Shown in pieces: positions 45,501 through 48,316 of a DNA stretch of 64,000 nt. The notes below the pieces were generated by a model. It worked only from the letters and a program-made list of their open reading frames with translations, was not told the DNA's origin and searched no databases. The DNA is from Tulasnella sp. 424. Its lineage: Eukaryota > Basidiomycota > Agaricomycetes > Cantharellales > Tulasnellaceae. Location of the stretch: the NCBI GenBank assembly GCA_019633425.1, contig WSUB01000024.1, forward strand, positions 248,001 to 312,000, written 5' to 3'. The translations under genes and the position numbers were made by a program. Every line of letters begins with the position of its first letter. Positions within the stretch are counted from its first letter, which is position 1.

Positions 45501-46346
45501 GAAGATCAGGGTGGAGATATGCGGGTGCAATAAAGTTACAGCGGTGGCTTGGGAGCGACGCACAAAAGCAAAAGGAGTTTCGGTGCCTGACAGATAGAGG
45601 AGCGCGAAAGTGAAGGACAGTAGAATGAAGTCATGTGGTCGTGAGGGAGTGCTGAAACCCACAGGGTGAAGTTTTTCCGACCGGGTGGAAACGTCTTGAA
45701 GGGATTATAGAGCGTTGAATGTGCGAGTCAAGTGGGGGGAGCGGTCGCGAAGCATGGTCAAATGTCGTGAAGCGGGTGGACCTAAGCTCCGGAGGGAGCG
45801 CGGGAGCCAACTTTGCAGTTGGTGGGGTGCCACTACATGACCAAGCCACGGAGCTGTCATAGGCCAACCCGAAGCACCGGTGTGAAATCGAAATAGCACA
45901 GACCCAGAAAAAGCAAAAAAAAAGGTGGTCAGCGCCGATCTGTGGGACTAGACATCGGTTTCCCTTGTTTCCGCTACAGGCCTTTAGCCAGAAAGGCACG
46001 GCGAACGAAGCAGGGAGGAAGGGGTGTGGCATGTGCATGTACTCACGTTCTGGGTTATAATGATACTTGAAAATTTGCCAAGCGACGAATATTCGATCGA
46101 TGTGCCAATGCATGCCGTGTTACGTTTTTCACATGGTTAGAGCAAAAGAGAAAAAGAGTGTTCCATGTCAATACAACAATTAGAATGCGGTTGGTTCATA
46201 TGCATGCCAGCGTAGAACGAAAGTAGAAATGGAGGGAGGAGGGTTTCGGTGTTAAGTTAGGGGACGATTAGGGAAAAGAATTCCAATGTCTTTTTTTTCC
46301 TTCTGCGGAGGTTGGGCGGTAGTGACGTCTTCCAGGCGCTGCATTA
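42540..46346. other. 3.8-kb region without recognisable genes
   Basis: Downstream of the CBM1 gene and at the 3' side of the G-alpha gene. I find no catalytic domain, no RNA gene and no mobile element. The part near 45420-46250 is likely 3' UTR or intergenic. Confidence 0.4.
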
Positions 46347-48316
46347 TTACAGCAGCGCCGCGTCCTTGAGCCCTTGCCGGAGAGCAACACTGCCAATCCG
46401 GATGAAAGGCGAAAAGGTGGGGTAAAAAGTTGAGTTGAGCATGCGGGAATCGCCGAATGCCAGAGAAGGGCAAGAAAGGGATTTGTGGTGGGAGAGAAAA
46501 GAAGTGGAGGGAAAGGGTACTCACTCTGTAAAAAAAAGTATGAGAACCGAAAGAGTTTTGGTCAGCAAAAGAATGCCATAACATGAACATCAACAACGTA
46601 CCTTCAACAGCGGCCATGACTACACGTAATAGGGCGGTATCCGTCGCATTGGTGAAGCTTCGAGAAATGAGAGACACGGGCAAGCGGTTAGCATTTTCTG
46701 GGCCGGGGGTACGGCATAGCAGAAACGGGCAGGGACGAGGCGTACTGTGTATAAATTTCCCGTTCCTTCTGTCGATTAGACTTGGCACTTAATTTGAGGA
46801 ACCGTCGCTTGAAGTAGGTCTTGCCCTCGTCGACGTCGCCGGTAGCGCCTTCATAATCCTGGGGGTGGGACGATACCCGTTAGTCAAGCGATGAAAGCAG
46901 TCAGCCGAACATGGCGTCATACCGGGAAGAAGTTCTTGATAGGCGAGGACTTGACCTTCCTTTCGAAGATATCAGTTTTATTAAGGAACAGGATCTACAG
47001 GGGGCAGAAGTGTTAGCCTGGATTCCGAAGGAGAGATAGCACAGCACGTACCAAGGACGTAGTCTTGAACCATTGGGAATGGCATATCGAATCCCAGATG
47101 GCCATGGCGTCCTGCATTTGATTCTACACATCCAAACAGAGATTCGTCGGCGTCGGCAAAAGGAAGGGCACGACACCCGGCACGCGAACTTACCGCATCC
47201 TTATCTTCTACAAGACACTGATCGTACCCGCTCAACGACACCAAAAACAGGATCACCGTTACGTCCTGGAAACAATGGATCCACTTCCTCCGTTCGCTCT
47301 TCTGACCGCCGACATCCAACATATGCAAATCATGCCCCTTCAACTTGAAAACGGTCTCCGTAATACCAGTCGTCCTCGCTCTCGACCGAATGATATCTTG
47401 CTCCGTCGGTCGGTAGTCGGATTTCCATAACCGTGGCAGGTCGGCGAAGTAGCTGAGAAATTCCGAGTTTGGTAAGTGAAAAAAAGCGGAAGCCACGACC
47501 ACCCTCCGCCACTGTCGGGAGCGGCGGGAGAATAAACAGGACTTACTAGGCCAAACTGTAAGGGATTGGAATATAGAGGAGTGTGGGGTCAATACAGTCA
47601 GCCACAACGATGTGGCGCAAGCAAAAACGAAGTTCCGCCGCGAGACGCACTTTTCAGGTAATGCAGCTTCGTTCCCTCTCACATAAGCCTTCTTGACTCC
47701 TGGATCCTCCCATAGCTTCGCGCAAGGTTCCAAGAATTGAGGCGGGAACGGGTCGCCGTCTTTCAGGTCGGTGAACGAGTCGAATAGTGGTAAATAATCC
47801 TGTAGAAGGAATGGGTCAGGACATTGAGCGCCGTTCGCGAACTTTGCGGATATTGGGGGGGATGAGAGGCATGAAAGGGATTTGCGCACCTTGTTCTCGT
47901 CGCTCACTTCAAAGTCGAATTCATGCATGGCGTCGAGCAAGGCTTTGAGCCCGAGAATGACGTTACTGAAAACCAGTTGCCTGTAACCCTCAATCTCCTG
48001 CGCGTTGAAGTAAACTTTGTGGATTAATCGCATTTGCTGCAGTGGTACGAGGTTAGCGGGTCAATGGATCTCCCTACCCTCCGCGCACCGGACCGCACCT
48101 TCAAGATGGTCGACTTTCCAGAGTCTCCGGAGCCTAACAGCAGTACTTTCACTTGCTTCGACATCTTATCTTTCGTCTGGAATGACAGTCTTTGAGCTCC
48201 CATCACGACCGGCACGGCAACCGAAACCCGGCGCGCACCTCCTTCATTTGCCTCTCGACCTCCTTGTTCTGCGCCGCCATTTGCGGGTCGACTGGTGTAG
48301 ACATACAACTCCCCAT
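46347..48316 (-). CDS. Heterotrimeric G-protein alpha subunit
   Basis: GTP-binding signal transducer at the plasma membrane, coupled to seven-helix receptors. Twelve exons: 48239-48316, 48099-48176, 47890-48036, 47651-47799, 47547-47555 (9 nt), 47194-47452, 47052-47123, 46923-46994, 46746-46858, 46602-46657, 46525 (1 nt), 46347-46389; total 358 residues. Signatures: N-myristoylation/palmitoylation start MGSCMS; P-loop GSGDSGKST (41-49; the usual form is GAGESGKST); switch I RARTTGITETVF with Arg178; DVGGQKSERRKW with Gln204; NKTD; and THFTNATDT created by splicing. Arg178 and Gln204 have exactly the positions of animal G-alpha-i1, which supports the model including the 9-nt exon. The C-terminus reads AVED, then VALRQGLKDAALL; the Asp codon is split over three exons. 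The tail lacks the Cys at -4, so it is not a pertussis-type G-alpha-i. Subgroup not assigned. Confidence 0.9.

What the first reader, a model, noticed from the sequence alone, without database searches (positions are those of the whole stretch)
46525..46525. A one-nucleotide exon in the G-alpha gene
Exon 10 ends in phase 1 (GAA G) before a strong GTACGT donor at 46601. The last exon must start with T at 46389 to read VALRQGLKDAALL and a stop. The codon between needs one more base. Exactly such a base sits between a strong acceptor (T-run, TTACAG, ending at 46526) and a strong donor (GTGAGT, starting at 46524): a lone A. G+A+T gives Asp, the nearly invariant Asp that starts the last 14 residues of G-alpha proteins, and the tail then has exactly 14 residues. 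The only simpler path (donor GTTGTT at 46597) replaces Asp with Gly-Thr and makes the tail one residue too long. One-nucleotide exons are known but very rare.
Basis: partly seen in the sequence, partly recalled or inferred. Interest (0 to 1): 0.86.

Follow-up and report, generated by a model that had tools for sequence, protein, structure and literature searches.

The report
One-base exon feeding two Gα tails
A G-protein gene of a fungus related to mushrooms seems really to contain an exon of a single base, and that base leads into two alternative endings of the protein, in the part that touches receptors.

Summary
The one-nucleotide exon (A, 46525, minus strand) holds up. The genome is Tulasnella sp. 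425 or a near twin. The best database relative, P0001 (97% identical, on a 1,669-base contig, hence taken as spliced), reads ...VVMAAVE-D-IIITQNLRGLVM. Of all GT/GC-AG chains with one or two introns, exactly one gives VVMAAVEDIIITQN: exon 10, the lone A, then 46065.

It is encoded downstream by a 19-nt exon (46065-46047) and a last exon (45853-45833). Both tails start with T after GA, so the lone A serves both.

Among 202 relatives held, 86 of 86 transcript-derived ones have that Asp, with one of two tail types (A: 14 residues; B: 13, once 12). Of 116 genome-annotated ones, none has Asp plus a normal tail, and 26 end exactly VEE, as expected if cag|A|GTRAG is misread.

Verdict: a real one-base exon, probably Agaricomycete-wide, shared by two alternative receptor-contact tails of one Gα gene. 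One-base exons and alternative Gα ends are each known; my searches did not list the combination. Open: RNA reads here, tail A use in Tulasnella, function of the switch.

The parts
46602..46657 (-). Exon 10 (56 nt), encodes ...FTNATDTALLRVVMAAVE plus the first base (G) of the Asp codon
   Evidence: conserved in relatives
46526..46601 (-). Intron 10 (76 nt), GTACGT...CTTTTTTTTACAG
46525..46525 (-). One-nucleotide exon 11 (A), middle base of the Asp codon
   Evidence: only splice chain that gives the P0001 peptide; single AG-N-GT of the interval
46390..46524 (-). Intron 11 to tail A (135 nt), GTGAGT...GGCAG
46347..46389 (-). Exon 12A: last base of the Asp codon, tail A VALRQGLKDAALL and stop (43 nt coding)
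   Evidence: matches the tail A pattern of 47 transcript-derived relatives; no Tulasnella transcript with it was seen
46047..46065 (-). Exon 12B (19 nt, TATCATTATAACCCAGAAC): last base of the Asp codon, first part of tail B (IIITQN)
   Evidence: P0001 tail located by tblastn and read in the sequence; splice chain unique
45833..45853 (-). Exon 13B (21 nt coding): LRGLVM and stop, end of tail B
46658..48316 (-). Exons 1-9 of the G-alpha gene (48316-48239, 48176-48099, 48036-47890, 47799-47651, 47555-47547, 47452-47194, 47123-47052, 46994-46923, 46858-46746) with their introns
   Evidence: Pfam G-alpha 402.8 bits for the tail A product

Best explanation
A Galpha gene of the kind annotated in mushroom-forming fungi as 'heterotrimeric G protein alpha subunit 4' or 'GPA2-like' splices exon 10 (...GAAG) to a one-nucleotide exon A and then to one of two alternative 3' modules. 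Both modules start with T, so G+A+T always makes the conserved Asp. Module A (46389) gives D-VALRQGLKDAALL; module B (46065, then 45853) gives D-IIITQNLRGLVM. One base leaves no room for the 3' and 5' splice sites to be bound together, so the two introns must go one after the other; most likely intron 10 goes first and its removal hands exon 10 the donor GTGAGT, which then chooses the near (A) or the far (B) acceptor. The result is one Galpha body with two different C-terminal receptor-contact helices, so the choice should change which receptors the protein serves. Shown: the anatomy on DNA, and the tail B chain through the A, by a transcript-derived protein of a close relative. Inferred: use of tail A in this species, the order of splicing, regulation, and receptor selectivity.
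For: Sequence anatomy. P0001 carries Asp and tail B, and only the chain through the A at 46525 gives VVMAAVEDIIITQN. 86 of 86 transcript-derived relatives have Asp; in the search ranked by the whole protein, 50 of 50. 26 of 116 genome-annotated relatives end exactly VEE, the product of reading cag|AGTRA; one of them, P0002, has L009 as its DNA, which reads cag|A|GTGAG. Two tail classes with their own invariant positions, spread over the tree of the bodies: 22 changes against a shuffled mean of 22.4 with 84 rows. Bodies 93.5% identical (P0046, P0099) and, both transcript-derived, 91.6% identical (P0032, P0033) differ in tail class.
Against: No RNA read was seen, and P0001 comes from another strain or species (97%). 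No transcript-derived protein with VALRQGLKDAALL was listed. With 79 transcript-derived rows the tail classes are somewhat clustered (19 changes, shuffled mean 25.1, 6 of 1,000 as low). DNA with both modules was seen only in the window and in L009, a recent copy whose introns are about as similar as its exons and whose exon 12A runs past its stop. The queries contain the Asp, so those rows are not neutral on it. Regulation and receptor choice have no direct evidence.
Confidence: 0.88

Rival explanations
1. The one-base exon is real, but the gene makes only one tail in practice: tail B is the working end in Tulasnella and exon 12A is a relic, and elsewhere species have kept one or the other.
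For: P0001 has tail B, and no Tulasnella transcript with tail A was listed. In L009 exon 12A runs past its stop while tail B stays open. Tail classes are slightly clustered among 79 transcript-derived rows.
Against: Exon 12A of the window is intact and keeps the tail A pattern shared by 47 transcript-derived relatives. Tail classes change at least 7 times on supported branches, also between bodies 91-94% identical, which would need many independent losses.
Confidence: 0.1
2. No one-base exon: exon 10 is spliced from the donor at 46597 (GTTGTT) straight to 46389, giving Gly-Thr in place of Asp.
For: It is a simpler chain and keeps the frame. 9 of 116 genome annotations show Gly plus one extra residue before a tail.
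Against: It cannot give the P0001 peptide. 0 of 86 transcript-derived relatives have Gly there.
Confidence: 0.02
3. A base is missing from the assembly, or the mRNA is edited, and there is one ordinary intron.
For: A one-base frame problem is what such an error would look like.
Against: L009 has the same phase and the same A between splice signals. Both tail modules need the same extra base. Genome annotations of many species fail at the same point.
Confidence: 0.01

Closest known systems
One-nucleotide exon of CYP621A in Fusarium (PMC12940212; outline and part 1 of 3 of the text read)
   Same: Single base between AG and GT, phase 1 before and phase 2 after, needed to keep a conserved residue, missed by gene finders.
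   Different: Different gene and phylum; base G inside a Gly codon; no alternative modules after it are described in the part read. The paper has read-level support, which is lacking here.
One-nucleotide microexons of plant APC11 and VPS55 (PMC8831610; passages read)
   Same: Conserved one-base exons with GTRAGT donors, absent from annotations.
   Different: Plants; in the passages read the reported variation is presence or loss of the base, not a shared base before two alternative ends.
Vertebrate GNAO with mutually exclusive last exon pairs 7-8 (PMC5896119; passages read)
   Same: One Galpha gene with two alternative C-terminal ends that reach the receptor-contact region.
   Different: GNAO's exon pairs arose by local duplication and are whole exons; here 12 or 13 residues after the Asp are swapped, the tails are unlike each other, and a one-base exon precedes both.
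Galpha12 C-terminal end (PDB 1zca, 7wz7)
   Same: A tail B end (P0121) aligns to the last residues of these chains, DTIITQNIRDIMM against DTILQENLKDIML in 1zca.
   Different: Resemblance of a short end only; the body is a fungal Galpha, and common descent of the tail was not tested.

Membership tests
Single-nucleotide exon (as CYP621A, APC11, VPS55) | One base flanked by canonical acceptor and donor | tested here: met
   CAG|A|GTGAGT, the only AG-N-GT in the interval
Single-nucleotide exon (as CYP621A, APC11, VPS55) | Base required for frame and for a conserved residue | tested here: met
   Without it: VEVLLSGKG... or VEVSL-stop; with it the Asp
Single-nucleotide exon (as CYP621A, APC11, VPS55) | Present in transcripts | tested here: inconclusive
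   Met at protein level (P0001, unique splice chain); no nucleotide reads could be seen
Single-nucleotide exon (as CYP621A, APC11, VPS55) | Conserved in orthologous genes | tested here: inconclusive
   86 of 86 transcripts with Asp; 26 of 116 annotations ending VEE, one calibrated on DNA; DNA of other species not held
Galpha subunit | Full-length match to the G-alpha family | tested here: met
   Pfam PF00503, 402.8 bits (tail A product) and 405.5 bits (P0001), cut-off 48.8
Alternative C-terminal exons of a Galpha gene (as GNAO) | Two intact alternative end modules behind one gene body | tested here: met
   46389-46347 and 46065-46047 plus 45853-45833, both in frame after G+A
Alternative C-terminal exons of a Galpha gene (as GNAO) | Both ends expressed from the same gene | tested here: inconclusive
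   Only tail B for Tulasnella; both classes among close relatives
Alternative C-terminal exons of a Galpha gene (as GNAO) | Isoforms couple to receptors differently | not testable with these tools
   Only sequence resemblance of the ends to different Galpha classes
Alternative C-terminal exons of a Galpha gene (as GNAO) | Origin by exon duplication | not tested
   The two tails are unlike and too short to judge

The most novel reading that the evidence does not exclude
Since early in Agaricomycete history one Galpha gene has made two receptor-selective proteins by a tail switch whose hub is a one-base exon. The base works as an obligatory two-step (recursive) splice point that hands exon 10 a fresh donor, and this donor chooses between tail A (LRxNLxxAALI) and a Galpha12-like tail B (SxNIRxIML). 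The switch is regulated, re-aims the Galpha at other receptors during growth or fruiting, and is missing from most current annotations of this gene.
Probability: 0.5. Interest if true: 0.87.

Novelty: new variant of a known kind. Interest (0 to 1): 0.78.

Why it matters
One-base exons are known from a handful of genes. Here one sits in a central signalling gene, appears to be kept across a class of fungi, and stands at the fork of two alternative receptor-contact tails. This makes two questions testable in laboratory mushrooms: how a spliceosome handles a one-base exon, and whether fungi re-aim a Galpha by splicing. It also matters for data: 80 of the 116 genome-annotated relatives held here end in neither tail, among them a deposited Flammulina filiformis protein (P0085), so functional work built on such models uses a Galpha without its receptor-contact end.

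Tried and rejected
A whole-genome search with exon 10's end plus P0001's tail found only exon 10 of the window gene and of L009; the tail pieces are too short for it. They were found in the window by tblastn; an ungapped 14-residue scan in the same script found nothing, since the tail is split over two exons. In some searches P0086 (GSILSSNIRAALL) was labelled tail A by its last letters; it fits tail B, and repeats the count with the label mended (22 changes, shuffled mean 22.4, 484 of 1,000 as low). Exon 12B was one base off; the right place is 46065-46047. Conservation of the A in L009 was set aside as proof of selection, because introns and exons of the pair are about equally similar. The other Galpha loci (L010-L027) were fetched but their ends were not read for one-base exons. 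No structure was predicted: a helix would not tell the two tails apart in function.

Papers: PMC12940212 (outline, and part 1 of 3 of the text); PMC8831610, PMC5896119, PMC9030616 and PMC5034255 (passages from term finds); PMC10532568 (term find without a hit). Listings showed no one-base exon or alternative tail in a basidiomycete Galpha; they cover open-licence PMC papers only, and the lists were capped.

Full report
What was claimed and what is there. The sequence facts it gave are correct. I rebuilt the gene as 12 exons; all 11 introns start GT and end AG, and the product has 358 residues, ending VVMAAVE-D-VALRQGLKDAALL. This product and its closest relative both match Pfam G-alpha over nearly their whole length. 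In the 212-nt interval between exon 10 and exon 12A, AG-N-GT occurs once, at this base. AG-A-GTRAG occurs 7 times on both strands of the window, with a pyrimidine tract once (here), and in 0 of 5,000 shuffles of the interval.

Which organism. The paralog about 98 kb away on the same contig (L009) encodes, over 321 residues, exactly the protein P0002 of Tulasnella sp. 425 except for its last residue. The genome is that strain or a near twin.

Transcript-type evidence. The best of 6,991 hits is P0001: 97% identical, 353 residues, on a contig of 1,669 bases. A gene with 11 introns could not give such an open frame from genomic DNA of that length, so I take it as a spliced transcript; I take the source code 'lgn' to mean assembled public sequencing runs (recalled, not stated by the tool). 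P0001 ends VVMAAVEDIIITQNLRGLVM, which is not the expected tail. The window encodes this end downstream of exon 12A in two pieces: TATCATTATAACCCAGAAC at 46065-46047, between TTTTCAAG and GTGAGT, and CTCCGTGGCTTGGTCATGTAG at 45853-45833. I enumerated the chains of one or two introns with GT or GC donors and AG acceptors, introns of at least 40 nt. Exactly one gives VVMAAVEDIIITQN: donor 46601, exon A at 46525, donor 46524, next exon from 46065. For tail A four chains are possible, among them the Gly-Thr rival, so tail A alone would not have settled the case.

Relatives. Three searches, each with a capped list, gave 202 proteins. I called 86 transcript-derived (sources lgn, jgi or ena only, longest contig under 5 kb) and 116 genome-annotated; this division is mine. 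All 86 have Asp after the end of exon 10, with tails of 14 (53), 13 (32) or 12 (1) residues. Of the 116, none has Asp plus a normal tail. By the first residue after exon 10: 74 have Gly; 27 have Glu, 26 of them as the last residue (VEE); 5 have Val, 5 Ala, 2 Asp and then an odd sequence; 3 lack the motif. In one search, which is ranked by the whole protein, the figures are 50 of 50 with Asp against 0 of 70. The queries contain the Asp, so those lists are not neutral on it. VEE is what an annotator gets by splicing exon 10 to cag|AGTRA and stopping inside the donor. P0002 is a calibrated case: its DNA is L009, which reads cag|A|GTGAG. Val starts would follow from using the AG inside GTRAG as an acceptor, and Gly plus a perfect tail (19 of 116) from an aligner that places the lone base as a mismatch; both are inference. 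VEE models include Tulasnella, Clathrus, Punctularia, Ganoderma, Grifola, Agaricus, Coprinopsis, Flammulina and Pleurotus, which covers several orders of Agaricomycetes (recalled). 80 of the 116 end in neither tail.

Two tails. Seven of the 86 were left out of the tail and tree analysis, four because they are short and three because they are divergent or long-branched. Of the other 79, 47 have tail A, with Asp1, Leu4, Leu8 and Ala11 in all and Arg5 in 46; 32 have tail B, of which 31 are 13 long, with Asp1 and Arg9 in all. On trees of the bodies without the tails, 84 rows (transcript and genome) need 22 changes of class against a shuffled mean of 22.4 (after mending one label). The 79 transcript-derived rows need 19 against 25.1, with 6 of 1,000 shuffles as low and at least 7 changes forced by supported branches. 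So the classes are widely scattered but not quite at random in the second set. Bodies 93.5% identical (P0046, P0099) and 91.6% identical (P0032, P0033, both transcript-derived) differ in tail class. With both modules behind one exon 10 in the window, alternative splicing of one gene is the simplest reading. I saw DNA with both modules only in the window and in L009.

Paralog. L009 keeps the lone A, its signals and an open tail B (DIALTQTLRGKALLM), while its exon 12A runs past its stop. Introns (86-94%) and exons 1-10 (90-100%) of the pair are similarly alike, so this is a recent copy and weak evidence of selection. Exon 12B is among its least similar pieces (14 of 19).

How it probably works. 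One base cannot be bound at once by the factors of a 3' and a 5' splice site (general knowledge, inference here), so the introns should go one after the other. If intron 10 goes first, exon 10 gains the donor GTGAGT, which can choose 46389 or 46065. Leaving the A out gives VEVLLSGKG... with exon 12A or VEVSL-stop with exon 12B; keeping intron 11 gives VEE-stop. Each of these destroys the tail. The C-terminal tail of a Galpha is its receptor-contact helix (general knowledge). A tail B end (P0121) aligns best with a Galpha12 construct, to its last residue (1zca; DTIITQNIRDIMM against DTILQENLKDIML); of the 60 chains shown of 200, only 1zca and the mini-G12 chain 7wz7 reach that far. A tail A type end aligns best with Galphao (60 shown of 186). 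This suggests different receptor sets but does not show them.

Against what is known. One-base exons are published for plant APC11 and VPS55 (PMC8831610, passages) and for Fusarium CYP621A (PMC12940212), which that paper calls the first in a fungal gene. Alternative last exons of a Galpha gene are known in vertebrate GNAO (PMC5896119, passages). The listings showed no one-base exon or alternative tails in a basidiomycete Galpha; they cover open-licence papers only. I rate it a new variant of a known kind.

Noticed in passing
window 47555-47547 (-): Exon 5 of the same gene is only 9 nt (TTTGGCCTA). The annotated relatives P0003, P0004 and P0006 read ALPENYF or ALPENYY, as if this exon had been skipped or missed.
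   Followed up: partly
L009 (contig C157:193000-197500 of the window's genome): A second, recent copy of the gene about 98 kb away keeps the lone A and an open tail B, but its exon 12A has lost its stop and reads into a C-terminal extension.
   Followed up: partly
L009:3845-4501: A reverse-transcriptase domain (Pfam RVT_1, 65.8 bits) lies just downstream of the copy's tail B stop.
   Followed up: partly
L009:3465-3730 against window 46065-45833: The 19-nt tail B exon differs at 5 of 19 positions between two copies that are near 92% alike elsewhere, so the copies may be diverging in their receptor tail.
   Followed up: no
G000 contigs C396 (about 168-179 kb) and C405 (about 123-178 kb): Clusters of G-alpha-like matches in the window's genome, beyond the usual few fungal G-alpha genes; not read further.
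   Followed up: no
P0085 (Flammulina filiformis, 349 aa): A deposited mushroom G-alpha ends VEE, so it seems to lack its receptor-contact tail.
   Followed up: no
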